From Sphingorhabdus lutea (GTDB lineage: Bacteria; Pseudomonadota; Alphaproteobacteria; Sphingomonadales; Sphingomonadaceae), in assembly GCF_001889025.1 (NCBI RefSeq), contig NZ_CP018154.1, positions 228,501 to 292,500 on the forward strand: 64,000 nt of DNA, in the 5' to 3' direction. The notes under the pieces are model-generated. The model saw only the letters and a list, made by a program, of their open reading frames with translations. It was not told the DNA's origin and ran no database searches. Both the position numbers and the translations under genes were made by a program. The first letter of the stretch is position 1. Each line of letters starts with the position of its first letter. Of this stretch, positions 13,912-27,209 are shown in pieces.

Positions 13912-15009
13912 TTAAAATTTCAATGGCCCATGTTCAATATGGGGCAATACATGGCGTGAGAATAAATCACATTCTGCGGCATGGGGATATCCGGACAAAA
14001 TAAACGCCTCAATCCCTGCATCCTGATATGCTTTTAATTTTTTCAGAACCTGATCAGGATCGCCGACAATTGCGGCGCCGCAGCCCGAACGTGCACGGCC
14101 AATACCCGTCCATAAATTATCCTCTACAAAGCCATCGCCGCCCGCTGCACCGCGAAGCTCCGCCTGACGCTGCACCCCGTAATTTTTGGCATCCAGCGAT
14201 TTATTGCGAATGGCATCGCCGGTTTCACTATCCAATTTTGACAATAAACGATCGGCATAGGCACGCGCCTCTTCCTCCGTTTCGCGTACAATCACATGGG
14301 CACGATAGCCAAATTTCATGGTGCGGCCATATTTTGCGGCCCGCGCCGTAATATCAGCAATATTTTCCTTCACCTTATCCATGGTGTCGGGCCACATTAA
14401 ATATACATCACATGCCTCTGCGGCTGCTTCGCGCGCTTCATGGCTTAATCCACCAAAATATAGCGGCGGGCATTTGCCCGAACGGGTCGCGATACGCGGC
14501 GGTTCAACCTCCAATTGATAAAATTCACCCTGATGGTTTAAATATTCACCCGCCAACATGGTTTTAAGGATTTTCATCACCTCCACCGTGCGGGCATAGC
14601 GCGGGGCGCTATCCATATTTTCACCAGGCATGGGCGATGAAATAATATTCACGTTCAAACGGCCCGATGTGCCGTCGCTATTTGCACCCAAAATTTGGTC
14701 CAATGTGGCAATACGGCGGGCCAATTGTGGTGGCCAATCTTCGCCAATACGTACCGCCCAAAGCAGTTTTAAACGTTCCAAAAATGGCGCAATGGCCGCC
14801 GCAAATATGGTGGTATCAATGCCCAATTGATAACCAGAGGGCAGCAATATATTGTCATATCCGCCCTTTTCCGCTGTCATCACAATATTACGGCAATGTT
14901 CCCAGCTGGATTGCAGGGCCGGATCAACCTGTCCCAAAAATTCATAATCATCGTCGCATAGCGCCGAAAACCAGCTTATCTCGCATTGTTTTTTCACATT
15001 CTCACTCAT
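13912..15009 (-). CDS. Flavin-dependent sulfonate monooxygenase, probable sulfoquinovose monooxygenase (SmoC-type)
   Basis: A 365-residue bacterial luciferase-like (LLM) monooxygenase of the SsuD type. Such enzymes use FMNH2 and O2 to cleave a C-S bond and release sulfite and an aldehyde; with sulfoquinovose the product would be 6-oxo-glucose. The residues that bind the sulfonate in E. coli SsuD are all present: W206 (SsuD W196), R236 and H238 (SsuD R226, H228, in FGYRAHVIVRET), R307 (SsuD R297) and Y341 (SsuD Y331, in ILSGYPH). It is the last gene of a minus-strand operon after the sulfoquinovosidase, LacI regulator and aldo/keto reductase; its ATG overlaps the reductase stop by 4 bp. The FMN reductase needed for activity is in the neighbouring plus-strand operon. 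The sulfonate class is well supported; SQ as substrate comes from context. Confidence 0.85.
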   Translation of the reverse strand: MSENVKKQCEISWFSALCDDDYEFLGQVDPALQSSWEHCRNIVMTAEKGGYDNILLPSGYQLGIDTTIFAAAIAPFLERLKLLWAVRIGEDWPPQLARRIATLDQILGANSDGTSGRLNVNIISSPMPGENMDSAPRYARTVEVMKILKTMLAGEYLNHQGEFYQLEVEPPRIATRSGKCPPLYFGGLSHEAREAAAEACDVYLMWPDTMDKVKENIADITARAAKYGRTMKFGYRAHVIVRETEEEARAYADRLLSKLDSETGDAIRNKSLDAKNYGVQRQAELRGAAGGDGFVEDNLWTGIGRARSGCGAAIVGDPDQVLKKLKAYQDAGIEAFILSGYPHAAECDLFSRHVLPHIEHGPLKF

Positions 15010-15914
15010 GGTAAAGCAACTCCTCTAGCAGCGACCAGCACATCATACCAATCATTCCGCGTCCATTTTACATTCAAACTTTCCATCGCCTCGGCAATGC
15101 GTTCCACCCGCTGTGACCCGATAATCGGGATGATGCGTGCAGGATGCGCCATAATCCAGCTATATGCCGCCGATGTGCGCGACACGCCCTGTTCATTTGC
15201 AACCCTGTCCAATACAGCAACCACCGCTTTTTCACGGTCATTTTGCGGATCGGCAATCCGCCCGCCGCCAAGGGGCGACCATGCCATTATTTTCATGCCC
15301 AATCGCATTGCCTGATCCAATTCGCCATTTTCGGCAATATCAATGCGAAGGGGTGAAAATTCGGGCTGGGTTGTTGCAATGGGAATGGTCAGAAAATGGT
15401 TTAACGCCTCTATCTGCGCCTGTGTCATGTTCGACACGCCCAAATTCAAAAATTTGCCTGCCTTATGCGCATTTTCCAATGTGCGCGCCAATTCCTGTGG
15501 ATGGGTTAAAATATCTGGACGGTGGATTTGCCATAAATCCATTTGCTCCACACCCATGCGGGTTAAGGATGCGTCCATCGCCTTTGCCAGATAATCTGCG
15601 CTGCTGTCATATGGGATGGGCGGCATAATCCCGCCCTTGCTGGCCAAGAACATCCGGTCCCGTAATGATGCATCACGGGCAAAAACCTTGCCCAATAATG
15701 TTTCAGAATCGCCAAAACCATCATTGCCGTTAAACCCGTAAATATCGGCTGTATCGAACAGGGTGATGCCTGCTTCCAATGCACCATTTACCAATTTTTC
15801 CGCCGCATCGACATCATCGCCAACAAAACGCCACATGCCCCATGCTATGGGGGATAAGGCGATTTTACTATCGCCCAAATGATGCGGGGCCGGGGAGGGT
15901 AGATATTGGTTCAT
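15006..15914 (-). CDS. Aldo/keto reductase, probable 6-oxo-glucose reductase (SmoB-type)
   Basis: A 302-residue YdhF-like aldo/keto reductase with the complete catalytic tetrad D54, Y59 (FDTADIYG), K93 (ASKGG) and H131 (WQIHRPD). The cofactor region contains MAWSPLGGG and IPIIGSQRVERI. In the described sulfo-SMO pathway of Agrobacterium an NADPH-dependent AKR reduces 6-oxo-glucose to glucose; this protein shares the family, the IHRPD and AWSPLGGG motifs and the C-terminal pattern as I remember them. AGGAAAA precedes the ATG. It overlaps the downstream monooxygenase gene by 4 bp and follows the LacI gene by 39 bp, so coupled expression is likely. Substrate is inferred from context. Confidence 0.8.
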   Translation of the reverse strand: MNQYLPSPAPHHLGDSKIALSPIAWGMWRFVGDDVDAAEKLVNGALEAGITLFDTADIYGFNGNDGFGDSETLLGKVFARDASLRDRMFLASKGGIMPPIPYDSSADYLAKAMDASLTRMGVEQMDLWQIHRPDILTHPQELARTLENAHKAGKFLNLGVSNMTQAQIEALNHFLTIPIATTQPEFSPLRIDIAENGELDQAMRLGMKIMAWSPLGGGRIADPQNDREKAVVAVLDRVANEQGVSRTSAAYSWIMAHPARIIPIIGSQRVERIAEAMESLNVKWTRNDWYDVLVAARGVALP

Positions 15915-15953
15915 ATATTTTCCTGACTATTGATATTTTTATTTGTTAGATTT

Positions 15954-16961
15954 TCATTTTATATTATTTTTTATGACAGATTTTCGTTGCACCAATTGAT
16001 GCACCAAACGTTGATGGCTTATCTCATCCCCCTTTAACAACAGGTCCGCCGCACGAAAGCCAAGGTCAAACATTGGTTGGTGAATGGTGGTCAATGGCGG
16101 CCAAACGGTCCGCGCCATGGTGGTATCGTCAAATCCCGCAACCGATAATTTTTGCGGCAAAGAAATGCCTCTATCATGTGCCTCTGCCAAAACGCCTGCG
16201 GCCATGTCATCATTACTGGCAAAAATGGCCGTTGGTGGATGCTTCATATCCAAAAAATATTTGCCCGCACGAACGCCGCTATCAAAATCAAATTGCCCCT
16301 CGGCCACCAATTGCGGTTCAAATGCAATGCCCGCACGGTCCAGCGCACGGCGATACCCAAATTGCCGATCATTGGATGCCATATGATTTTGATGGCCGGT
16401 GATAAACCCAATTCGGCGATGACCAAAATTGATCAAATGGCTGGTCATATCGTCGGCGGCCTGTGCATCATCCATAAATACCGATGATGTCATGGCATGA
16501 TTTGTGCCGGGGGAAATACGCACAAATGGTGTGCCCATCCCCTCCAACACGCGCAAGACAGCATCGCAATCGGTCACGGGGGAAGATAAAATTACGCCGT
16601 CCATATGCGCCTCTTTCACCAATGCGGCAACCTGTGCGCCAACATCTGGATCATCAACATTGACCGGCTGTGCCAATAAACGCACCTTGCCCTCATGGCA
16701 TCTTTCCCAACATCCCGATTGAATTTGATGCATATAATAGGGGCTGTGATTATCATATATTAACGCAATTTGACCCGATTTTGTTCCGGCCAGCACACGT
16801 GCGGCCATATTGGGCCGAAAATCAAGCTGCGCCATTGCATCCTCAACCTTTTTACGGGTCGCGTCGCTGACATATTGATGATCGTTCAACACGCGGCTGA
16901 CTGTTTTTACAGACACCCCCGCCAATGCAGAAACATCGCGGATATTTGACCGTTCAGCCAT
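15954..16961 (-). CDS. LacI family transcriptional repressor of the sulfoquinovose locus
   Basis: A 335-residue protein when started at the ATG at 16961, which has GGGGAG 4 nt upstream; the in-frame extension to 17129 lies inside the upstream gene and lacks support. The N-terminal helix-turn-helix has the LacI signature (IRDVSALAGVSVKTVSRVLN) and a hinge with AARVLAGTKSG. A periplasmic-binding-protein-like sensor domain follows (ASNDDMAAGVLAEAHDRGI, VAGFDDTTMARTVWPPLTTI). The start overlaps the sulfoquinovosidase stop by 8 bp. It probably senses SQ, SQ-glycerol or a pathway intermediate and binds the 19-bp motif present at 19082 and 23383. Confidence 0.9.
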   Translation of the reverse strand: MAERSNIRDVSALAGVSVKTVSRVLNDHQYVSDATRKKVEDAMAQLDFRPNMAARVLAGTKSGQIALIYDNHSPYYMHQIQSGCWERCHEGKVRLLAQPVNVDDPDVGAQVAALVKEAHMDGVILSSPVTDCDAVLRVLEGMGTPFVRISPGTNHAMTSSVFMDDAQAADDMTSHLINFGHRRIGFITGHQNHMASNDRQFGYRRALDRAGIAFEPQLVAEGQFDFDSGVRAGKYFLDMKHPPTAIFASNDDMAAGVLAEAHDRGISLPQKLSVAGFDDTTMARTVWPPLTTIHQPMFDLGFRAADLLLKGDEISHQRLVHQLVQRKSVIKNNIK

Positions 16962-19023
16962 ATTTCTCCCCTTGATTTTCACTGTTCCGTGCAGAGCATA
17001 GTCCAGCAAAGAGTTGAGAAAAAGTGCTATTTTCTTTATAAAATACGGGCGGTTCACCATAGGGAGAGGCAACATCATGCCAACCAGAAGTAAATTTTTT
17101 ACCCGACCATAAATGCACCCAATTTTCACCAGCGGGCAGATATAATTTTCGGCTAAATTGATCCGCCTCTATTATGGGGGCGACCAGCATATCTGTGCCA
17201 TATAAATATTGATCCTGCATGTCGCCTACTTCACTATCATCTGGATAATGTAGGAAAAGCGGGCGTTGCAGGGGAAGGCCATCTTTAACAGCCTGATCGC
17301 TCATAAATCGAACATAGGGGGCAAGCGCCAAATGCACCCGCGACATGGCGGCGAAATGCGACAATAAGTCATCATTGCTATCATATTGCAGATTATCATC
17401 GGGCCGATTGCCCTCATGCGAACGCATTACCGGTGTAAATGCGCCAAGTTCGGCCCAGCGTTTCATTAAATCGGCCGTGCGAATATTACCGTGCAGCGAA
17501 GTATAGCCGCCCACATCATGATGGCTATATGCATTGCCGACAAGCCCCGCAGAAAGCGCCGCAGTGATTACCGTGCCAATGCCGTCATGGCGGGAAAAAT
17601 CAACACATTGGTCGCCCGCCCATAAAAGCGGGCAATGCGCCTGAACCCCGCTTGCCCCCGCGCGCATAAAAAAGACAATATCATCGCGGCCGCGCGATTT
17701 TACTGCCATATCATTTACTTTGGCCCATAATAATGGCCATAAATTATGCGCCTCCATCGGGTCGCTGCCATCATGAAGGCGCAAATCAATGGGCAGATAT
17801 TCACCAAAATCGGCCATCCATCCCGACAGGCCAAAATCAATCATTTGCTTCGCGATAATTTCCTCGGCAAACCATTTTTGGGTTTCAGGACGCGTAAAAT
17901 CCACCACGCCGCAATCAAATTGCCCAAAATCCACCAAATATGGCTCATCATCATGCAGGTTTAACGCCAAATGACCGCCCGACTTCGCCTCAGCAAATTG
18001 TGCGGCATCCACCGCAATATAGGGGTTAACATATCCCAAGAAACGGATATTTTTTTCGGCCAATTCCTTTATCCGATTAGGCAAATCGGGATATCTTGCC
18101 TCATTCCACGACCAATTCCAAAATAATCGGCGACCAAAATCGGTTTGCCTTATCCCGACCCAATCTTCACACCATAAACCCGAAATGGCGGTGCCAGCAT
18201 CGGCAAATTTTTCCAAACGGGCAAAGCTATTATCGCCATCTTTCAATCCAATTATCGCGCCGCCAATTGCCCAATTGGGCAATGCAGGTTGCCGGCCAAA
18301 ATATTGCGCCAATTGTCCAACGATAGACAATTGATTTTCGCCCATGAATAATTTGATATTTAACTCATTATTCCAATATGTTATTTTATGACTATCGCGC
18401 GATGTAAAATCCATCTCTGCATAGGCCGTGCCATCAATATGACAGGCATAATGACGATCGGAAATAAATGTCGGCTGCGGATAATTGCTGGTCCAATAAT
18501 CACCACCCGCCATGCCGTCGGCGTCCATAATTTTTGTTAATTCGGTCGATTTGTCACGGCCAACCCCCGGCTCGCTGGTCCAAATGGGAAAATTGCGCCC
18601 GCGCAGATTTAAATAGCTCATCTGCTCCCCACCACCATATATATGCTCATTTTCCAGAGCATTAAGTGACATGACGATTCGGTTTATTTCTGGGTTGCTC
18701 GCCTTTATATTGAGTGTAAAATAGCCATCCTGCTGCTCTAATTGTAAAATAATGGACTGGCCGTCATCTTCGCCCGATCCAGCCTTATTTAAAAGGGTGA
18801 CGCGCTGCGCCTCGCAATTTTGGACGATATAGGGCGAATATACCGATTTTAATGTATCGGCGATTTTGAAATTCCCGCGCACCATTTCAACATCTTCATC
18901 ACCAATGGCAATGGTGAATGCAGGCGATTTTTCACGATGCGACAAAAGGCACAACTGCCCCAACATCAAATCGAAACCATTGTCTAATGCCCTAAATTCT
19001 GCCATTTTTAATGTTGAAGACAC
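16954..19023 (-). CDS. Sulfoquinovosidase, GH31 (YihQ-type)
   Basis: Hydrolyses alpha-sulfoquinovosides such as SQ-glycerol to sulfoquinovose and an alcohol. The 689-residue length matches E. coli YihQ. The catalytic nucleophile is D405 (GWMADFGEYLP) and the acid/base is D471 (WAGDQCVDF). Residues that recognise the sulfonate line up: R299 and W302 (FGRRLFWNW; YihQ R301, W304) and Y507 (DVGGYTSL; YihQ Y508). K261 and E286 replace the two Gln of E. coli, giving the K-E-R-W-Y set described for Agrobacterium-type sulfoquinovosidases, as I recall. No signal peptide is seen, so it acts in the cytoplasm. The start is GTG at 19023 with GGGGAA about 9 nt upstream; ATG at 19005 is possible. First gene of a four-gene operon. 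Confidence 0.93.
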   Translation of the reverse strand: MSSTLKMAEFRALDNGFDLMLGQLCLLSHREKSPAFTIAIGDEDVEMVRGNFKIADTLKSVYSPYIVQNCEAQRVTLLNKAGSGEDDGQSIILQLEQQDGYFTLNIKASNPEINRIVMSLNALENEHIYGGGEQMSYLNLRGRNFPIWTSEPGVGRDKSTELTKIMDADGMAGGDYWTSNYPQPTFISDRHYACHIDGTAYAEMDFTSRDSHKITYWNNELNIKLFMGENQLSIVGQLAQYFGRQPALPNWAIGGAIIGLKDGDNSFARLEKFADAGTAISGLWCEDWVGIRQTDFGRRLFWNWSWNEARYPDLPNRIKELAEKNIRFLGYVNPYIAVDAAQFAEAKSGGHLALNLHDDEPYLVDFGQFDCGVVDFTRPETQKWFAEEIIAKQMIDFGLSGWMADFGEYLPIDLRLHDGSDPMEAHNLWPLLWAKVNDMAVKSRGRDDIVFFMRAGASGVQAHCPLLWAGDQCVDFSRHDGIGTVITAALSAGLVGNAYSHHDVGGYTSLHGNIRTADLMKRWAELGAFTPVMRSHEGNRPDDNLQYDSNDDLLSHFAAMSRVHLALAPYVRFMSDQAVKDGLPLQRPLFLHYPDDSEVGDMQDQYLYGTDMLVAPIIEADQFSRKLYLPAGENWVHLWSGKKFTSGWHDVASPYGEPPVFYKENSTFSQLFAGLCSARNSENQGEKYG

Positions 19024-19081
19024 GCTATTTTATTCCCCATTTCCCCGATTATTATGTTGCCATAGTGCAACAGTAATTGCG

Positions 19082-19100
19082 TATGACACCGCTTGACATA
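19082..19100. promoter_or_regulatory. Candidate LacI-family operator 1
   Basis: TATGACACCGCTTGACATA is an imperfect palindrome (TATG-n-CA ... TG-n-CATA). A copy differing at two central positions lies at 23383-23401. It sits between the divergent sulfoquinovosidase and receptor genes and overlaps the putative -35 box of the receptor promoter, so bound repressor would block transcription. Confidence 0.7.
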
Positions 19101-19122
19101 ACAATCTATACCGCTCTATGCA
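19093..19122 (+). promoter_or_regulatory. Putative sigma70 promoter of the TonB-dependent receptor
   Basis: TTGACA at 19093-19098 and TATGCA at 19117-19122 are separated by 18 bp, 93 bp before the receptor ATG. On the other strand TTGCAT and TATGTC with a 17-bp gap could serve the sulfoquinovosidase operon. Both overlap operator 1. Confidence 0.55.
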
Positions 19123-19214
19123 AGTATCGAGAAATGAATAAGCGAAAAAAAGTTTATCCATCTCGATTAAGATAGAAACGGAAAAACCGTATAACATTTT
19201 TTTAGGAGGAACGA

Positions 19215-21560
19215 ATGAGCAATCGCCAAAATGGCCTTAGCAAATTGACCAAGAGCCTTGCATATTGCGGCTCTGTATCATTATTCGCACTTGCAATGGC
19301 GGCTCCCGCCCATGCACAGGTCGAAGAAATCGTTGTGACCGCACAAAAGGTTGAACAAAATGTTCAAGATGTGCCAATTTCCATCACCGCCATTTCGGGC
19401 GATCGTTTGACCGAAACAGGCACAAACAGCCTTGAAAATATTGGCGATCTTGTTCCTTCGGTTACTTTCCGCAAAGGCACAACCAATGCGAACAGCGCGA
19501 TTGTGATGCGCGGCGTTGGCACGATTACCTTTTCTGTTGCCGCAGAGCCAAGTGTTTCAACCGTTGTTGACGGTGTTGTTTTGAGCCGTTCTGGCCAATC
19601 CTTCATCGATTTATTGGATTTGGAGCGCATTGAAATTTTGCGCGGACCACAGGGCACATTATTTGGTAAAAACGCCTCTGCTGGTTTGGTCAATATCGTA
19701 TCAAAAGGCGGCACTGACAGTTTTGAAGCATCAGCAAATGCCGAATATTTTGAAGGCGACGAATATCGTTTCCGTGGTTCGGTTTCCGGCCCAATTGCCA
19801 AAGATCTTTCCGCACGTGTAACCGGTTTTTACGGCAGCTATGATGGTAATATTACCAACATCAACACCGCTGCAACAACCGCGGCAGACAGCGGCAAAAA
19901 AGTCAATGGCTATGAACATTATGGCGCGCGCGGCATTTTGGATTATAATGGTCCATCGGCTAAAATTCGCTTGATTGCCGATTATTTCAAGGCAAATGAC
20001 GATTGCTGTGCAGAGGTTACCGGTGTTTCACGCGGCGCAACTTTGGATGCTGAACTTGGCCTTCCCGGCGGCGTTGCACTTGGCGAAGATCAACGTTATG
20101 TCAATCATAATCTTGTCACACAAAGCCTTGATACACAATGGAGCTTAACCGGTTCAGCCGATATTGATGTTCCTGGCGATCATGTGCTTAGCGTGATTTT
20201 AGGCTATCGCAATTGGCAAAATACCGAATTGCGCGAAGGTGATTTCTTGCCCCGCGCTGTTGTCGGCACCGCCCAATTGCATGACGAAGGTTTTGTTGAA
20301 ACTGATCAAATGTCGGCGGAAGTCCGTCTTGCATCTGATCAATCAAAGCCTTTCTCTTATCAAGTTGGCACATTTATTTGGCACAGCAATAATAAACAAG
20401 ATTTCACACGCCGTGATATTGTTTGTTCTGCATCCACCTTGCCCGTTGCGACAAGTGGCGCCACACCTTGTGATGTTAACAACACCACATTGACCACTTT
20501 CCCAACCGCCACATCGGCAAGTGACGTGAACAGCACCAACTTTGCCATTTTTGGACAAGGTACATATCGTTTCACTGATATGCTAAGCCTAACCGCTGGC
20601 CTGCGTTGGACAAGAGACGAATTGTCGTTCAATCACTTCCGTGCACCTGGCGTTAATGCGACCACTGGTCTGCCTTTGACGGGTCCTGGCGTTTCCGGCA
20701 ACCCGGCGGGCGGCACAGTTGCAAGCGGCGGTAACGGCACCAATGTATCCGTTGGCGAAAGCGCGAACAGCAATTTCTCTGGCAAGGCATCATTGCAATT
20801 TGAACCAAGTGATGACTTGCTATTTTATGCAAGCTATACACGCGGTTATAAAGGCCCTGCGTTTAACGTCTTCTTCAACCATACAGCACCAACCAATGCC
20901 GTGCCAATAGATGAAGAATTGTCAGACAGCTATGAAATTGGCATGAAGTCACAATTTTTGAACGATATGGTTCAATTTAACACATCATTATTCCATGTGA
21001 CCTATGATGGGTTCCAAGCGAACAACTTTATCGTTCTAAACGGTGCAACTGTAACCAACCTGACCAATGCAGGCACAGTGCGCAGCAAAGGTTTTGAAGC
21101 CGATGCGATTATCAGCCCAGTCCAAGGTCTGAATTTCCGTGGTAGCGTGGCCTATGCCGATGCAAAGGTTAAGAAGTTTAATCCCAACCCAATCACCAAC
21201 GCACCAGATGCGCGTAATGGCACCCGCTTGCCATTGGCACCAAAATGGTCATGGAATGTTGGCGCGGATTATGAAACCGAGCTTGGCGCTTCGATGAAGC
21301 TATATGCCAGCACAATTTATAGCTATACTGGCGATCAATTCTCCGACCTTGGTGAGGGCGGCCCGATTGACAGCTATGGTATTTGGAATGCCAGCCTTGG
21401 CTTTGGCGATGCGGACGATAAATATCGTCTGACATTCCATGCGCGCAATATTGGCGATACCAGCTATATTTTGCTGAACACAAGTGCAGGACAACGTTTG
21501 CACATTCCGCGTGATGCAGACCGTTATTTCGGTGCGACATTAAGCGCGAAATTTAAATAA
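19215..21560 (+). CDS. TonB-dependent receptor, probable sulfoquinovoside uptake
   Basis: A 781-residue outer-membrane receptor. It has a signal peptide ending in PAHAQ near residue 35, a TonB-box-like segment (EEIVVTAQK) directly after it, a plug domain at about 50-165 (IVMRGVG, RIEILRGPQGTLFGKNASAGLVNIVSK) and a 22-strand-type barrel to the C-terminus (YFGATLSAKFK). AGGAGGA precedes the ATG. Sphingomonads commonly use this receptor type for large or rare nutrients. It is divergent from the sulfoquinovosidase operon and shares its operator, so the likely ligand is SQ, SQ-glycerol or a sulfolipid fragment. The ligand cannot be read from the sequence itself. Confidence 0.9.
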   Translation: MSNRQNGLSKLTKSLAYCGSVSLFALAMAAPAHAQVEEIVVTAQKVEQNVQDVPISITAISGDRLTETGTNSLENIGDLVPSVTFRKGTTNANSAIVMRGVGTITFSVAAEPSVSTVVDGVVLSRSGQSFIDLLDLERIEILRGPQGTLFGKNASAGLVNIVSKGGTDSFEASANAEYFEGDEYRFRGSVSGPIAKDLSARVTGFYGSYDGNITNINTAATTAADSGKKVNGYEHYGARGILDYNGPSAKIRLIADYFKANDDCCAEVTGVSRGATLDAELGLPGGVALGEDQRYVNHNLVTQSLDTQWSLTGSADIDVPGDHVLSVILGYRNWQNTELREGDFLPRAVVGTAQLHDEGFVETDQMSAEVRLASDQSKPFSYQVGTFIWHSNNKQDFTRRDIVCSASTLPVATSGATPCDVNNTTLTTFPTATSASDVNSTNFAIFGQGTYRFTDMLSLTAGLRWTRDELSFNHFRAPGVNATTGLPLTGPGVSGNPAGGTVASGGNGTNVSVGESANSNFSGKASLQFEPSDDLLFYASYTRGYKGPAFNVFFNHTAPTNAVPIDEELSDSYEIGMKSQFLNDMVQFNTSLFHVTYDGFQANNFIVLNGATVTNLTNAGTVRSKGFEADAIISPVQGLNFRGSVAYADAKVKKFNPNPITNAPDARNGTRLPLAPKWSWNVGADYETELGASMKLYASTIYSYTGDQFSDLGEGGPIDSYGIWNASLGFGDADDKYRLTFHARNIGDTSYILLNTSAGQRLHIPRDADRYFGATLSAKFK

Positions 21561-21573
21561 GTTCCCACCCCCG

Positions 21574-21611
21574 TAGCGGCCAGAAGCGTTTTTTCTGGCC
21601 GCTATTTTTTT
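21574..21611 (+). terminator. Strong rho-independent terminator of the receptor gene
   Basis: TAGCGGCCAGAA (21574-21585) pairs with TTCTGGCCGCTA (21593-21604) as a perfect 12-bp stem and is followed by TTTTTTT. It starts 14 bp after the receptor stop codon. Confidence 0.95.
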
Positions 21612-21612
21612 G

Positions 21613-21942
21613 CCTAAAATTGGCCATAGCCATATGCCTTAAATTACCGATAATGTTCTAAATCTACCCAGCGACCGTGGCCTAGATAGCCCTGTCCTAA
21701 AAAATCTTCATGATTGTCTTTAATATGTTTAATCAAGCTGCAAAGTTTAGATGAATTTAGGCAAAATCATTAAATCATAGAATCAAAATATTGATGGCCG
21801 GTGTGTTTGCGTCGGCTTTTTTTGCATGATTAAGTTAGCGCAGCTATCTTATAGCTAAGAGCAAATAGTTGCTTCCTTACCGACCATTACATCCACCTAA
21901 GCGCTGCCCCCCGATTAAATGAGATAAAAGATTATATCAGAC
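21613..21942. other. Noncoding stretch with an orphan terminator-like hairpin
   Basis: About 330 bp with no supportable gene on either strand. The only structure seen is GCCGGTGT...GCGTCGGC followed by seven T (21797-21823), a hairpin with wobble pairs that points rightward. It lies beyond the receptor terminator, so a short unannotated transcript could end there. Confidence 0.4.
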
Positions 21943-21971
21943 AAAAAAAGGGACGGAAAAACCGCCCCTTT
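21943..21971 (-). terminator. Rho-independent terminator of the MFS gene
   Basis: AAAGGGACGG and CCGCCCCTTT pair (one mismatch) around an AAAAA loop. Read on the minus strand the stem is followed by a run of seven T, 22 bp after the transporter stop codon. Confidence 0.85.
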
Positions 21972-21993
21972 AATTTTACAATATAAAATCTTT

Positions 21994-23286
21994 TTATTGA
22001 TCATTCACAATTTTCAATTCCGGTTGAACGAAATGAATCCACGCCAACGCCAATAGATAAGCCATTGCCGACATGATGAACATAGGCGTATAGCCCAGCC
22101 CTGTATCAAGTGCCCATCCTGTAAATTCCAGCATCAATGCGCCGCTTAAATTCCCCGCAAGAGCGCCCATGGCAATTACGCTGCCCACACGGCTTGCAGG
22201 AATAATATCTGCGGTCATGCCAAAAATATTGGTGGAAAAGCCCTGATGCGCAAATAGACCAAGGCCGATAATCAATGCAGCAACCCATTCGTTTGGCGCA
22301 TATAGGGCCAATGGCAATGGCAAAATCAACAATGCATAACAAAACATGGATAATTTACGTGCCGCATTGGGGCTTTTCCCCTTGGCCAATAATAGGGGGA
22401 AAATAAAACCGCTGGTCAACGCACCTAAAGCCGCCAAAACAAACACCACCGCTGTGGGATAACCAATATCCGATTGTCCCAAATTAAATTGTCTTGCAAA
22501 AAAATCTGGCGACCAAAATAAAACGAACCACCATACCGCATCAGTAAGAATTTTTGCACCAACAACCGCCTGTGTGCGTTTTTCCTTTATTAACTTTGCC
22601 CATGAAATGGATTGGTTTTTGCCCGCTCCATCCTTTTTCTGCGCTTCGCCATCCAATTCATCTGCACCATAAATGGTCAAATTGCGCGTGCCAAAATACC
22701 ATAGGATAAGCCAAACAAAACCCAAGGCACCCGTGGCGACAAAGGCAAATTTCCATCCATAAGCTACGGCAATAATCGGCACCAAAAGTGGGGCCAAAAT
22801 TGCGCCAATATTGGACGCGCTATTTATCACCCCAATACCGATTGAACGTTCTTGCACCGGCAGATATGTCGCCGCCGCCTTAATGGCCGCAGGTGTGTTC
22901 ACCGACTCTGCCACGGCAAGGCTAATCCGTGCCATCACAAATTGTTGCACCGAAGTGGCTGCCGCATGGGCCATGCCTGCCAAACTCCACACCGCAACGG
23001 CAAGGCCATAACCCCAACGAACACCAACCTTATCAATAAACCAACCAACCCCCAAAAGGGCAACAGCAGCGGCAATTTGGAAGGAGGAACCAAATCGGGC
23101 AAATTCACCATCAGTCCATGAAAATTCGGCCTGAAGCATTGGTTTTAACAATGACAAAACCTGGCGATCCAAATAATTTAACGCAGTGCCAAAGAAAATA
23201 AGAGCGATAAGGCCTATCCTGATCCATTTTCCTTTATCATGCCCTCCTTTTCCCTTTCCATCCATAAATTGCTCAATTTGTTCCAT
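21994..23286 (-). CDS. MFS transporter, ACS (hexuronate-type) family
   Basis: A 430-residue inner-membrane carrier with twelve predicted helices. The N-terminal ALNYLDRQVLSLLKPML, GWFIDKVGVRWGY and ARISLAVAESVNTPAAIKA motifs are typical of anion:cation symporters of the ExuT/hexuronate group. AAGGAGG precedes the ATG. An anionic hexose carrier fits import of sulfoquinovose or SQ-glycerol from the periplasm after passage through the TonB-dependent receptor. The promoter contains the second copy of the LacI-type motif exactly between the -35 and -10 boxes. Substrate is inferred. Confidence 0.88.
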   Translation of the reverse strand: MEQIEQFMDGKGKGGHDKGKWIRIGLIALIFFGTALNYLDRQVLSLLKPMLQAEFSWTDGEFARFGSSFQIAAAVALLGVGWFIDKVGVRWGYGLAVAVWSLAGMAHAAATSVQQFVMARISLAVAESVNTPAAIKAAATYLPVQERSIGIGVINSASNIGAILAPLLVPIIAVAYGWKFAFVATGALGFVWLILWYFGTRNLTIYGADELDGEAQKKDGAGKNQSISWAKLIKEKRTQAVVGAKILTDAVWWFVLFWSPDFFARQFNLGQSDIGYPTAVVFVLAALGALTSGFIFPLLLAKGKSPNAARKLSMFCYALLILPLPLALYAPNEWVAALIIGLGLFAHQGFSTNIFGMTADIIPASRVGSVIAMGALAGNLSGALMLEFTGWALDTGLGYTPMFIMSAMAYLLALAWIHFVQPELKIVNDQ

Positions 23287-23378
23287 CCCTAAATCCTCCT
23301 TAATTATCTCTATTTTCTGAACAGTTATTTCTTATCTTAAATATATGCTTGCTCCCCATAGGGAAAATGATTTAAGAG

Positions 23379-23407
23379 AGGATATGACACCGCAGGACAT
23401 ACTTCAA
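23379..23407 (-). promoter_or_regulatory. Putative promoter of the MFS gene
   Basis: On the minus strand TTGAAG (23407-23402) and TATCCT (23384-23379) are 17 bp apart. The operator-like motif fills the spacer, a classical arrangement for repression. Confidence 0.5.
23383..23401. promoter_or_regulatory. Candidate LacI-family operator 2
   Basis: TATGACACCGCAGGACATA matches operator 1 at 17 of 19 positions. It lies between the divergent MFS gene and the exporter-glpD-FMN reductase-RibB-like operon, so one repressor could control both. Confidence 0.7.
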
Positions 23408-23456
23408 ACAAAATATGCATTGTGGTAATTTTTTTGAAAATAGTTAAGCTTAATCT

Positions 23457-24551
23457 ATGATAGATAAATGGAAAAAAAGTCGCAAGCTGGCAGAGCAAAG
23501 TCAATTTGCTGGCGATTTATATGGGGAAGTATATCTTTCTAGTGAAGAACAGGCTGTAAAGCCAGAGCGTAAGCCATTATTTCACGGCCTTTCAATTGTC
23601 GTCATGGCCAGTTTGGCGGCGGCATGGCTGTCTGAACATTATGGCATGCCCATTATTTTATTGGGCCTGTTAATTGGCTTGGCGTTAAACTTTCTTTCAA
23701 CGGACGAAAGAACCCATGCGGGCCTTGATTACGCATCGCGAAATTTCCTGCGCTTTGGCATTGTTTTATTGGGATTGCAGGTAACATTCCTGAAAATTGG
23801 GTCGTTGGGCGGTTTAACCTTTATTGCGCTTATCATTGTCATGTCGGCGGCCATTGCAGGATCATTTTTGGCCGCGCGTTTTTCCGCCCAATCAAATGCC
23901 GCTGCCATATTGGCAGGCGGCGCAACCGCCATTTGCGGGGCATCCGCAGCACTTGCCATTTATTCGGTTGTGGGCAAGGAACGCGTGTCACAGGCGCAAT
24001 TTGCGCTTATCCTCGTCGGTATTTCTTTGTTCAGTGCATTGGCGATGACATTATACCCAATGGCGGCGGATTTATTGCATTTAACAGACAGGCAGGCAGG
24101 ATTTTTAACCGGCGCGGCCATTCATGATGTGGCTCAATCGCTGGGCGCGGGTTTTGCCGTATCGGATGCGGCGGGCGGCTATGCCACCATTGTTAAATTG
24201 GCGCGGGTCGCCATGCTGGCCCCGATTGTGGCGATTATTTCCATGTTTATCAGCTCTAATGATGAGAATGAGCAATCAAAACCCATTTGGAAAAAATTGG
24301 CTTTGCCATGGTTCATCACGGCATTTTTGGGTGTGCTGACATTAAATTCTCTGGTCGAAATGCCCGTTTATGTGGGTGAATATGGGCTTAGCATTTCAAA
24401 GGCATTATTATTATTGGCGGTCACGGCCACAGCCATGCGTTCGCGCATGGATTTGGTCCTGCAAATGGGATGGCGCAGTTTAATGCCGGTAATGGCGGCA
24501 ACCATCGCATCTTTTGTCGCCGCCATTATTTTCACCCTGACAATATTATAA
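23457..24551 (+). CDS. YeiH family anion (sulfate/sulfite) exporter
   Basis: A 364-residue membrane protein of the YeiH/UPF0324 family, annotated elsewhere as putative sulfate exporter. Ten or eleven helices; family motifs include LRFGIVLLGLQVTFLKIG, GGATAICGASAALAI and GAAIHDVAQSLGAGFAVSD. The N-terminus has about 45 cytoplasmic residues. No clear Shine-Dalgarno precedes the ATG at 23457. It is the first gene of a plus-strand operon whose members overlap, and it sits next to operator 2. Since SQ cleavage by a monooxygenase releases toxic sulfite, a role in sulfite or sulfate efflux fits well; this is inference, because direct transport evidence for the family is limited. Confidence 0.85.
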   Translation: MIDKWKKSRKLAEQSQFAGDLYGEVYLSSEEQAVKPERKPLFHGLSIVVMASLAAAWLSEHYGMPIILLGLLIGLALNFLSTDERTHAGLDYASRNFLRFGIVLLGLQVTFLKIGSLGGLTFIALIIVMSAAIAGSFLAARFSAQSNAAAILAGGATAICGASAALAIYSVVGKERVSQAQFALILVGISLFSALAMTLYPMAADLLHLTDRQAGFLTGAAIHDVAQSLGAGFAVSDAAGGYATIVKLARVAMLAPIVAIISMFISSNDENEQSKPIWKKLALPWFITAFLGVLTLNSLVEMPVYVGEYGLSISKALLLLAVTATAMRSRMDLVLQMGWRSLMPVMAATIASFVAAIIFTLTIL

Positions 24552-24562
24552 TGGGCGCGATT

Positions 24563-26062
24563 ATGAACGAAAAAATATATGATATTGCCATTATTGGCGG
24601 CGGTATAAACGGCACAGGAATTGCCCGCGATGCGGCAGGACGCGGGGCAAATATATTGTTGCTGGAAAAAGGCGATTTGGCCAGCGGCACATCATCGGCA
24701 TCGACCAAATTAATTCATGGCGGGCTGCGTTATTTGGAACATTATGAATTTGCATTGGTGCGTGAGGCATTGAGCGAGCGGGAGAGATTATGGGCCATTG
24801 CCCCGCATATCATCCACCCCATGCGTTTCATCCTGCCCTATCGAAAGGGACTGCGCCCTGCATGGTTATTGCGATTGGGTTTATTCATTTATGACCATTT
24901 GGGGGGGCGAAAAAAACTGCCCGCCACACAAAGCGTCAATTTACATAAACATCCCGCCGGACAGGCAATTGACGATATGTTTGTTAAGGGTTTTGAATAT
25001 AGCGATTGCTGGGTCGATGATGCGCGTTTGGTGGTGTTAAATGCGCGTGATGCGGCCAATAATGGCGCCGATATCATGCCCCATCACAATGTCGCCAAAT
25101 TGGAACGGGATGGCAAATTTTGGCGAATTACCGCGAATGAAAATGGCAAGGAACATATTTTTTGCGCCAAAAGCATCATTAACGCCGCCGGTCCTTCGGT
25201 AGCAAATTTGCATAAATTATCCGGCGAGCATAGCAATTTGGGGATAAGGCTGGTTCGCGGGTCGCACATCATTGTTCCAAAAATATTTGACCATGATTAT
25301 GCCTATTTCTTTCAAAATCCCGATGGCCGAATATTTTTCGCCATCCCATATGAAGATGATTTCACCTTAATCGGCACAACTGATCAGGATCATGAAGGCA
25401 CATTGGATGAGATAAAAGCAAGCGATGAAGAAATCGCCTATATGTGCACATCGGCCAGCGATTATTTCAAAATACCAGTGCGCCAAGAAGATGTGATATG
25501 GACATATAGCGGGGTTCGCCCATTAATAGACGATGGTTCAGGACGGCCCGAATCCGCGACAAGAGGATATAGTTTTGAATGTGATGGCGGGGGTGACAAC
25601 GCGCCGATTTTATCCATATTTGGCGGAAAAATAACCAGCTATCGCCATTTGGCAGAAGAAGCATTGGACCGAATGGCGGCGCATTTACCGCGCATGAAAA
25701 CCGGCAAATGGACATCAACAAAGCCGCTTCCAGGTGGCAATTTCCCAACCGATGGCCGCGCGGCATTGGTGCAAAATTGGGCGGCGGCGCATCCATGGGC
25801 ACAGCAAAGCTGGTTGAAAAGATGGGCACGCAGCTATGGCACATTGGCCGAAAATTGGTTGTCAAATGCCGTATCCCAATCCGATTTGGGGCAAGATTTC
25901 GGCCATGGGCTATATGCCGCAGAGGTGGATTATTTAATTGACCAAGAATGGGCAAGACACAGCGATGATATTTTATGGCGGCGGACCAAATTGGGCCTGC
26001 GTTTAACGCCGGAGCAAGTTAAAAATTTACAAAATTATGTTGAAAAAAGGATCATGACATGA
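24563..26062 (+). CDS. glpD: Glycerol-3-phosphate dehydrogenase, GlpD-type
   Basis: FAD enzyme that oxidises glycerol-3-phosphate to dihydroxyacetone phosphate at the membrane and feeds electrons to quinone. 499 residues, close to family length. It has the dinucleotide-binding motif YDIAIIGGGINGTGIARDA at the N-terminus, then TSSASTKLIHGGLRYLEH and WTYSGVRPL, all typical of GlpD. A second possible start at 24551 overlaps the exporter stop (TAATG). The stop overlaps the FMN reductase start by 4 bp. In this context it would use glycerol released from SQ-glycerol by the sulfoquinovosidase, after phosphorylation by a glycerol kinase that is not in the window. Confidence 0.93.
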   Translation: MNEKIYDIAIIGGGINGTGIARDAAGRGANILLLEKGDLASGTSSASTKLIHGGLRYLEHYEFALVREALSERERLWAIAPHIIHPMRFILPYRKGLRPAWLLRLGLFIYDHLGGRKKLPATQSVNLHKHPAGQAIDDMFVKGFEYSDCWVDDARLVVLNARDAANNGADIMPHHNVAKLERDGKFWRITANENGKEHIFCAKSIINAAGPSVANLHKLSGEHSNLGIRLVRGSHIIVPKIFDHDYAYFFQNPDGRIFFAIPYEDDFTLIGTTDQDHEGTLDEIKASDEEIAYMCTSASDYFKIPVRQEDVIWTYSGVRPLIDDGSGRPESATRGYSFECDGGGDNAPILSIFGGKITSYRHLAEEALDRMAAHLPRMKTGKWTSTKPLPGGNFPTDGRAALVQNWAAAHPWAQQSWLKRWARSYGTLAENWLSNAVSQSDLGQDFGHGLYAAEVDYLIDQEWARHSDDILWRRTKLGLRLTPEQVKNLQNYVEKRIMT

Positions 26063-26622
26063 CCATTAAAATCGTTGCCATTGGCGGCACAGTAAACCCC
26101 AATTCCTCCACCGAACAAGCATTGGTTTTTACCGCAAATGTCGCCCGCGACATGGGGTGTGAAATTTCCGTCTTTGGCGGTGAATATTTAATGGCATTGC
26201 CCCATTATGGCGGTCCGGACAGCGATTTGGATCGCGGCAAAGAAATGGCAGAGGCGGTTCGCGCCGCCCATGGTGTTATTTTGGCATCGCCGGGCTATCA
26301 TGGCTCTATTTCTGGACTTGTCAAAAATGGTTTGGATTATTTAGAATTATTGTCAAAGGATGATCGGGTTTATCTTGACGGACGCGCCGTGGGCATGATT
26401 GCCACCGCATTTGGGCATCAGGCCGCGATGAGCAGCCTGCAAAGCCTGCGTACCATCACCCATGCGCTTCGTGGTTGGCCCACCCCCATGGGCGCGGCGA
26501 TAAAAACATCACATGGTTTATTCACCCCCGATGGCGGTTGCAGCGACGAAATTATCGCGGCACAATTAACATTGGTTGGTCAACAAGTGGCCGAAGGCGC
26601 AAGAAAGCTGTCAAAATTATGA
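26059..26622 (+). CDS. NADPH-dependent FMN reductase, SsuE-like
   Basis: A 187-residue flavodoxin-fold reductase. It has the flavin-phosphate loop GTVNPNSSTEQAL near residue 10 and the second flavin motif SPGYHGSISGLVKNGLDYLE near residue 80, both typical of SsuE/ArsH-like NAD(P)H:FMN reductases. It would supply FMNH2 to the SQ monooxygenase encoded on the other side of the receptor gene. It overlaps glpD upstream (ATGA) and the RibB-like gene downstream (ATGA), so all three are translationally coupled. In the described Agrobacterium cluster the reductase is, as I recall, of a different flavin-reductase family, so this may be a non-homologous replacement. Confidence 0.9.
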   Translation: MTIKIVAIGGTVNPNSSTEQALVFTANVARDMGCEISVFGGEYLMALPHYGGPDSDLDRGKEMAEAVRAAHGVILASPGYHGSISGLVKNGLDYLELLSKDDRVYLDGRAVGMIATAFGHQAAMSSLQSLRTITHALRGWPTPMGAAIKTSHGLFTPDGGCSDEIIAAQLTLVGQQVAEGARKLSKL

Positions 26623-27209
26623 GCGATATTATCTCACAAGCAATTGCACAGTTGAAAAATGGCGGCATTGTCATTTTAACGGGCGATAATTTTCGCCATG
26701 GCGATATTGATTTTATCGCGCCGGCCAAAAATATCACCGCCGACAGCATCAATTTTATGGCAAAGCATGGGCGCGGACTTATTTGTTTGGGCATGACACC
26801 CAGCCGCGCCGGTTTTTTGAATATTGGCCATATAAATGACGGTGATGAGCGATATTCGGGCCGCCCACATGGCCGTTCGATTGAGGCGAAAGAGGGCGTT
26901 GAAACCGGCATTTCGGCCGCCGATCGCGCGCAAACCATTTTGGTGGCCGCAAATGAAAATAGCAGCGCCGACGATCTGGTTTCGCCAGGCCATGTTTTCC
27001 CCTTAATCGCGCATGCACAGGGATTATCGGCGCGAAATGGCGCGTTGGAAGCTGCCATTGCGCTATGTCAAAAGGCCGAAATGGGCGATATGGCAGTGCT
27101 TTGTTCGATTATGCGCGATGATGGCAGCATGGCCAGAGCAACCGATATGGCTGAATTTGCCGCCGAACATGGCCTACCCATTATCGATATTTCCCAATTA
27201 AAAGGTTAA
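26619..27209 (+). CDS. RibB-like protein lacking DHBP synthase catalytic residues
   Basis: A 196-residue protein with the fold of 3,4-dihydroxy-2-butanone-4-phosphate synthase, judged from EAKEGVETGISAADRAQTI, SPGHVFPLIAHAQG and CSIMRDDGSMARATDM. The acidic loop DDEDRENEGD of RibB, which binds metal and substrate, is replaced by TGDNFRHGDI (residues 21-30). The catalytic His of RGGHTEA is A142 and the Glu of VLCE is S163. Only H125 of the active-site set clearly remains. It is therefore unlikely to make the riboflavin precursor. The ATG at 26619 overlaps the FMN reductase stop by 4 bp. It is the last gene of the exporter-glpD-FMN reductase operon, so a role in SQ catabolism or flavin handling is possible but unknown. 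Confidence 0.8.
   Translation: MSDIISQAIAQLKNGGIVILTGDNFRHGDIDFIAPAKNITADSINFMAKHGRGLICLGMTPSRAGFLNIGHINDGDERYSGRPHGRSIEAKEGVETGISAADRAQTILVAANENSSADDLVSPGHVFPLIAHAQGLSARNGALEAAIALCQKAEMGDMAVLCSIMRDDGSMARATDMAEFAAEHGLPIIDISQLKG

What the first reader, a model, noticed from the sequence alone, without database searches (positions are those of the whole stretch)
13912..27209. Probable complete sulfoquinovose (sulfolipid) oxidative desulfurisation regulon with TonB/MFS uptake
Seen: GH31 glycosidase with the sulfonate-binding residue set, SsuD-like monooxygenase with all SsuD sulfonate ligands, aldo/keto reductase with intact tetrad, SsuE-like FMN reductase, YeiH-type anion exporter, GlpD, ACS-type MFS carrier, TonB-dependent receptor and LacI repressor, in three adjacent units. 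Known: the sulfo-SMO pathway (described in Agrobacterium) turns SQ into glucose plus sulfite with sulfoquinovosidase, SQ monooxygenase, flavin reductase and an AKR. Inference: outer-membrane capture of SQ-glycerol, import, hydrolysis to SQ and glycerol, C-S cleavage, sulfite export, glycerol entry through GlpD. The TonB receptor, MFS carrier, different flavin reductase, GlpD and RibB-like members differ from the described ABC-transporter version.
Basis: partly seen in the sequence, partly recalled or inferred. Interest (0 to 1): 0.95.

Follow-up and report, generated by a model that had tools for sequence, protein, structure and literature searches.

The report
Sphingomonad sulfosugar-splitting gene cluster
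A bacterial gene set that takes up a plant sulfolipid sugar and splits off its sulfur by a pathway already known in close relatives, here joined to an altered look-alike of a vitamin-B2 enzyme whose job is unknown.

Summary
The core is a published pathway, oxidative desulfurisation of sulfoquinovose (SQ; sulfo-SMO/ASMO), described in Agrobacterium and in the sphingomonad Novosphingobium aromaticivorans (reviews). Nearest solved relatives are the SQ monooxygenases 7oh2/7olf and sulfoquinovosidase YihQ.

Added here: (1) an operator-like motif, TATGACACCGCNNGACATA, lies in both divergent promoters; these are its only exact matches in the 2.53-Mb genome. It recurs, with up to 4 mismatches, in 69 of 69 GH31/TonB-receptor and 26 of 27 MFS/YeiH divergent gaps tested in relatives. 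(2) The RibB-like gene is not an ordinary riboflavin enzyme: the His-154 position is changed in 25 of 25 sequences, Glu-39 in 24 of 25. Among 396 Sphingomonadales genomes it occurs in 35, all within the 88 SMO-positive ones, each time beside the same FMN-reductase gene.

I propose that this pair supplies or controls reduced flavin for the monooxygenase; the RibB-like protein's role is inferred. Verdict: new variant of a known kind. Pathway reading right, novelty overstated; the reductase/pseudo-RibB pair is the new part.

The parts
13912..15009 (-). SQ monooxygenase (SmoC/SquD type, LLM flavin monooxygenase)
   Evidence: 7olf E 1.9e-107, 7oh2 E 1.3e-104; 53% identity to the 7olf chain over 343 aligned residues; PDB titles name SQ desulfurisation
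15006..15914 (-). aldo/keto reductase (6-dehydroglucose reductase, SmoB/SquF type)
   Evidence: best solved relative 7bbz E 8.2e-45; 4 bp overlap with SMO; in 80 of 80 loci
15954..16961 (-). LacI-family regulator
   Evidence: 76 of 80 loci
16954..19023 (-). GH31 sulfoquinovosidase (YihQ type)
   Evidence: E 3.8e-244 to 5ohy YihQ chain; 871.7 bits, cut-off 553, NF007746; pocket and catalytic residues kept
19082..19100 (+). operator-like site 1, divergent GH31/TonB-receptor gap
   Evidence: exact motif match; conserved in 69 of 69 gaps
19215..21560 (+). TonB-dependent receptor, presumed SQ-glycerol/SQ uptake
   Evidence: 71 of 80 loci, 51 of these at 50% identity or more
21994..23286 (-). MFS carrier (galactonate-transporter-like)
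   Evidence: TIGR00893 158.6 bits, below its cut-off of 395; PF07690; 64 of 80 loci, 34 of these at 50% identity or more
23383..23401 (+). operator-like site 2, divergent MFS/YeiH gap
   Evidence: exact motif match; conserved in 26 of 27 gaps
23457..24551 (+). YeiH-family (PF03601) membrane protein, presumed sulfite/sulfate exporter
   Evidence: PF03601 190 bits, over cut-off; TIGR00698 114.9 bits, below its cut-off of 232.6
24563..26062 (+). GlpD glycerol-3-phosphate dehydrogenase
   Evidence: 731.1 bits, cut-off 360; only PF16901 match in the genome
26059..26622 (+). PF03358 NADPH-dependent FMN reductase, presumed FMNH2 supplier of SMO
   Evidence: same 35 SMO-positive genomes as RibB-like at 295 bits or more
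26619..27209 (+). RibB-like protein: DHBP-synthase fold with changed metal-ligand positions
   Evidence: fold; residues; distribution:

Best explanation
A LacI-controlled SQ regulon of the sulfo-SMO type. The TonB receptor and MFS carrier import SQ-glycerol or SQ; the GH31 sulfoquinovosidase releases SQ and glycerol; SMO with its FMN reductase cleaves the C-S bond to sulfite and 6-dehydroglucose; the aldo/keto reductase makes glucose; YeiH exports sulfite; glycerol enters through GlpK (encoded elsewhere) and the cluster's GlpD. LacI binds TATGACACCGC-NN-GACATA in both divergent promoters and lets go when the sugar is present. The RibB-like protein is a former DHBP synthase that has lost its metal centre and now serves the FMN-reductase/SMO pair as a flavin-handling or regulatory partner. 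Shown by computation: gene identities, conserved neighbourhood, conserved motif, changed metal-ligand positions, pairing of FMN reductase and RibB-like. Inferred: transporter substrates, direction of YeiH, LacI binding and inducer, catalysis by these particular proteins, and the role of RibB-like. The confidence given is for the SQ pathway and regulon; for the RibB-like role alone it is about 0.5.
For: SMO nearest to SQ monooxygenases, ahead of MsuD and SsuD. GH31 nearest to YihQ with pocket residues kept. AKR, GH31 and LacI beside SMO in 80, 74 and 76 of 80 loci. Motif: 2 exact copies in the genome; 69 of 69 and 26 of 27 gaps; 129 hits at up to 3 mismatches against 2 for the reversed motif; absent in ten FMN-reductase regions without an SMO match. 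RibB-like: 35 of 88 SMO-positive, 0 of 308 SMO-negative genomes. FMN reductase at 295 bits or more in exactly those 35 SMO-positive genomes. Glycerol arm.
Against: No activity, expression or binding data. The FMN-reductase/RibB-like pair is absent from 53 of 88 SMO-positive genomes, so the pathway can run without it. Eight SMO-negative genomes carry the same FMN reductase without RibB-like, so the reductase is not tied to SMO. The SMO model is of moderate confidence (pLDDT 74). TonB receptor and MFS types vary among relatives. TIGR00698 is not met by YeiH. Five Arg/Asp/Thr positions of DHBP synthase are kept and one of 25 sequences keeps Glu-39, so some catalysis is not excluded. Two of 88 'SMO-positive' genomes (G024, G061) have only 52-53% identical proteins.
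Confidence: 0.88

Rival explanations
1. The RibB-like gene still makes DHBP: a second DHBP synthase that raises riboflavin/FMN supply when SMO is induced.
For: Fold and 35-37% identity to RibB structures; Arg-38, Asp-43, Thr-108, Asp-114 and Arg-151 kept in 25 of 25; FMN demand is plausible.
Against: His-154 position changed in 25 of 25 and Glu-39 in 24 of 25 (2 of these to Asp); Glu-39 mutants are inactive (PMC5228156 passages); the genome has a normal RibBA.
Confidence: 0.12
2. RibB-like acts on the sugar side, for instance as SQ mutarotase or on 6-dehydroglucose, rather than on flavin.
For: The kept Arg/Asp/Thr set lines the sugar-phosphate pocket of DHBP synthase; two new Arg-rich positions (R82 invariant) could hold a sulfonate (inference).
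Against: It lies beside the FMN reductase in 35 of 35 genomes and is missing from 53 SMO-positive genomes that must handle the same sugars.
Confidence: 0.25
3. A general alkanesulfonate or alpha-glucoside cluster, not specific for SQ.
For: NCBIfam's general names for GH31 and SMO relatives.
Against: SMO is far below the SsuD equivalog cut-off (252 against 518 bits) and nearest to SQ monooxygenases; the GH31 keeps the sulfonate-pocket positions; GH31, AKR and SMO stay together.
Confidence: 0.05

Closest known systems
Sulfo-ASMO/SMO pathway of Novosphingobium aromaticivorans (SquD, SquF; Liu et al. 2021, seen through PMC9594981 and PMC12890257 passages)
   Same: YihQ-type sulfoquinovosidase, SQ monooxygenase, 6-dehydroglucose reductase, in a sphingomonad
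   Different: That cluster is said to lack SsuE, reductase unknown; here an FMN reductase and a RibB-like gene are part of the regulon. Its own gene list was not seen.
Sulfo-SMO pathway of Agrobacterium tumefaciens (Sharma et al. 2022; paper not held; seen through reviews and PDB titles)
   Same: SMO, AKR, GH31; SMO 53% identical to the 7olf chain
   Different: ABC importer with SQ-glycerol-binding protein there; TonB receptor plus MFS here. SmoA there; PF03358 reductase plus RibB-like here.
DHBP synthase RibB
   Same: Fold, TM-score 0.90 to 7tye_A
   Different: Metal-ligand positions changed; found only in SMO-positive genomes of 396 and, at E <= 1e-70, in none of 384 other class-level genomes (sparse)

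Membership tests
Sulfo-SMO/ASMO SQ pathway | SQ monooxygenase homolog | tested here: met
Sulfo-SMO/ASMO SQ pathway | 6-dehydroglucose reductase (AKR) next to it | tested here: met
   (7bbz; that this is SmoB is recalled)
Sulfo-SMO/ASMO SQ pathway | SsuE/SmoA-type flavin reductase (common, not universal per PMC9594981) | tested here: not met
   PF03358 protein below the SsuE cut-off; SmoA type (PF01613) not among its matches
Sulfo-SMO/ASMO SQ pathway | growth on SQ with sulfite/sulfate release | not testable with these tools
   needs culture
GH31 sulfoquinovosidase (YihQ) | sulfonate-pocket residues (K245, E270, R283, W286, Y491 in the 5ohs chain) and catalytic Asp pair | tested here: met
   all kept; residue roles recalled
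SsuE FMN reductase | TIGR03567 cut-off | tested here: not met
   24.9 bits, cut-off 164.05
DHBP synthase RibB | overall fold | tested here: met
DHBP synthase RibB | metal ligands Glu-39 and His-154 (V. cholerae numbering) | tested here: not met
   changed in 24 of 25 and 25 of 25 sequences; window H and A; roles from PMC5228156 passages
LacI-controlled regulon | shared operator in the promoters | tested here: met
LacI-controlled regulon | LacI binding and SQ response | not testable with these tools
   needs gel shift or RNA-seq
YeiH export family | TIGR00698 cut-off | tested here: inconclusive
   114.9 bits, cut-off 232.6; PF03601 passes

The most novel reading that the evidence does not exclude
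The DHBP-synthase fold has been re-used, without its metal centre, as a dedicated accessory of SQ desulfurisation: a small protein encoded beside its own FMN reductase that delivers or regulates FMNH2 for the SQ monooxygenase, or acts on a sugar intermediate. Databases label it riboflavin synthesis. It would be a new kind of component for two-component flavin monooxygenases.
Probability: 0.5. Interest if true: 0.65.

Novelty: new variant of a known kind. Interest (0 to 1): 0.45.

Why it matters
SQ is a very abundant organosulfur compound and bacteria predicted to use sulfo-SMO take up its carbon in freshwater (PMC13372026 passages). A review says the flavin reductase of clusters without SsuE is unknown (PMC9594981 passages), and the word TonB does not occur in the main texts of four SQ papers searched. 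This locus offers a candidate reductase, a RibB-derived partner that databases name as vitamin synthesis, a candidate transport pair, and a motif that can help to call SQ regulons in sphingomonads.

Tried and rejected
Rejected: RibB-like as a normal DHBP synthase. Rejected: chance co-location. Rejected: RibB-like as a decaying pseudogene: in 19 of the 24 relatives' sequences third codon positions differ most (mean 0.512, against 0.209 and 0.155, 171 pairs), and 12 of 24 checked hold no internal stop.

Little gained: the PF01613 reductase of G180 had no match in the locus file, which held the 80 loci. A text search for KERWY listed eight unrelated papers of 104. PF00174 sulfite oxidase was not found in the genome; other sulfite-oxidising enzymes were not sought. 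RibB-like was not seen at E <= 1e-70 in 384 other class-level genomes. The text searches listed no title or abstract start about RibB, this FMN reductase, TonB uptake or a LacI operator in SQ use; one search found no paper, and one search showed 10 of 21. The motif's letters were not searched for in papers.
Full report
OBSERVATION. The ten open frames are at the stated coordinates with the named families: LLM monooxygenase, aldo/keto reductase, LacI, GH31, TonB receptor, MFS, PF03601, GlpD, PF03358 FMN reductase, PF00926 DHBP synthase. LacI starts at 16961 and GlpD at 24563. RibB-like starts at 26619 and overlaps the FMN reductase by 4 bp.

CORE ENZYMES. SMO is nearest to 7olf and 7oh2 (E 1.9e-107, 1.3e-104), ahead of 7jv3 (4e-63, MsuD) and 1nqk/1m41 (about 5e-53, SsuD). 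Its model (mean pLDDT 74, 65 residues under 50) finds 7oh2 and 7olf first; their titles name oxidative desulfurisation of sulfoquinovose. GH31 matches the YihQ chain 5ohy at E 3.8e-244 and passes NF007746 (871.7 bits, cut-off 553; that this model is YihQ is recalled). It keeps K245, E270, R283, W286, Y491 and both catalytic Asp positions of the 5ohs chain, which itself carries N at 455 (residue roles recalled). The aldo/keto reductase's best solved relative is 7bbz (that this is SmoB is recalled).

NEIGHBOURHOOD. A scan with the SMO protein kept the best 80 of 190 related loci. Over all 80, matches longer than half of the query: SMO 80, AKR 80, LacI 76, GH31 74, TonB receptor 71, MFS 64, YeiH 55, GlpD 44, FMN reductase 25, RibB-like 24. 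Contig ends and the 10-kb limit make the last figures too low; L055 has the FMN reductase at the locus edge. In 396 Sphingomonadales genomes, SMO matches at E <= 1e-40 occur in 88; G024 and G061 have only 52-53% identical proteins.

REGULATION. Both divergent gaps carry TATGACACCGCNNGACATA, at 19082 and 23383. In the window 2 matches stand against 0.15 expected at up to 3 mismatches. In the genome these are the only exact matches; three more have 3 mismatches, and the control gave five. In relatives, of 72 loci with GH31 and TonB-receptor matches, 69 have a divergent gap under 900 bases, and 69 of 69 hold the motif within 4 mismatches. Of 54 with MFS and YeiH matches, 27 have such a gap and 26 of 27 hold it; L108 does not. 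At up to 3 mismatches the 80 loci give 129 hits against 2 for the reversed motif. The nearest gene downstream within 600 bases is the TonB receptor in 67, YeiH 50, GlpD 1, FMN reductase 1, LacI 1 (inside GH31) and none in 9; 71 of 80 loci have at least one hit. In L044 a copy precedes GlpD, and in L099 one lies 60 bases before a partial FMN-reductase match.

Of 21 further regions, the motif is present in 7 (L141, L155, L156, L157, L159, L160, L161) and absent in 14: the ten FMN-reductase regions without an SMO match (L143-L152), L153, L154, L158 and Rhizobium L142. Where picked a LacI frame, motif-bearing L156, L157, L159, L160 and L161 have one 70-74% identical to the window's, and motif-free L154 and L158 have 50% and 62%. 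LacI binding is inferred. Shared descent alone could keep some of these bases; the upstream sequence as a whole was not compared. In the 19082 copy the motif holds TTGACA, so a -35 box may overlap it.

RIBB-LIKE. A profile of 25 RibB-like proteins (A1) separates 35 genomes (252.7-344.1 bits; G130 matched in part) from ordinary RibBA (232.3 bits at most) among 396. All 35 are SMO-positive, on the SMO contig, 1.5-12.7 kb away; 0 of 308 SMO-negative genomes have it (Fisher p 2.5e-26, not corrected for kinship). FMN-reductase matches at 295 bits or more, a limit set after seeing the scores, occur in 43 genomes: those 35 plus eight SMO-negative ones. Below it come 279 bits (G208, G304) and a long tail of weaker relatives, some directly beside SMO (G225, G270). 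The gap between FMN-reductase and RibB-like matches is -4 to 61 nt in 35 of 35. Three of the 35 reductase matches are flagged with a TGA; in the two checked, G364 and G108, it is the last codon. In the 80 loci, 24 of 24 RibB-like genes have the reductase, partial in L099.

The fold is DHBP synthase (model pLDDT 89.6; 7tye_A, TM-score 0.90). PMC5228156 (opening section; passages) gives Glu-39 as interacting with both metals, with loss of activity on mutation, and His-154 as M1 ligand. In 25 RibB-like sequences His-154 is A (22) or T (3); Glu-39 is G (16), R (5), D (2), H (1, the window) or E (1). Arg-38, Asp-43, Thr-108, Asp-114 and Arg-151 are kept in all; Glu-41 is Asp in all. So much of the sugar-phosphate side survives and the metal side does not. 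The genome's own RibBA is intact at these positions. RibB-like varies more than its neighbours (mean pairwise identity in 12 loci 0.69; FMN reductase 0.74, SMO 0.86) but shows a purifying codon pattern.

MECHANISM. The steps follow the published route (PMC12890257 and PMC9594981 passages). The glycerol arm is supported by GlpD being the genome's only PF16901 match (a GlpD without that domain would be missed), GlpK at C1:448589 and GlpD-GlpK after SMO in N. pentaromativorans US6-1. No PF00174 sulfite oxidase was found, which fits export or assimilation of sulfite. Pairing with the reductase makes a flavin-side role for RibB-like likeliest (about 0.5), a sugar-side role next (0.25), retained DHBP synthesis unlikely (0.12); the rest is unassigned.

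KNOWN OR NEW. The pathway is known, including in a sphingomonad, and Novosphingobium is labelled by 13C-SQ in water samples (PMC13372026 passages). In the listings I saw nothing on the RibB-like gene, this FMN reductase, TonB uptake or a LacI operator in SQ use. That library lacks most subscription papers: Sharma 2022 is not held and Liu 2021 was not looked up, so part of this may be printed there.

Noticed in passing
window 13912-27209 against G083, G131, G180, G181, G279 (same genus): The window's SMO is 72-75% identical to those of five same-genus genomes but 80-82% to some in other genera (G294, G271, G149), and of eight same-genus genomes only the window's has RibB-like: possible transfer between genera; no tree was built.
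   Followed up: partly
L158 6041-10879 (G180, same genus as the window): An SMO cluster with a Gfo/Idh/MocA oxidoreductase where GH31 would be and a PF01613 flavin reductase after SMO. Whether the former is a GH188-type sulfoquinovosidase was not tested.
   Followed up: partly
L147 2901-9779 (G288): No SMO match in this genome at E <= 1e-40, yet YeiH and GlpD-FMN reductase lie beside sulfate-activation genes (PAPS reductase, APS kinase, inositol-phosphatase families).
   Followed up: no
L142 (Rhizobium sp. WSM4643 plasmid pWSM4643_1): A 68.5% identical SMO stands beside a cluster annotated with alpha-glucosidase, SDR, gluconolactonase, aldolase, dehydratase and an ABC importer, which resembles a sulfo-ED set (recalled).
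   Followed up: no
L141 5449-7167 (N. pentaromativorans US6-1 plasmid pLA3): A TPR/sulfotransferase-family protein lies between two TonB receptors beside the SQ cluster.
   Followed up: no
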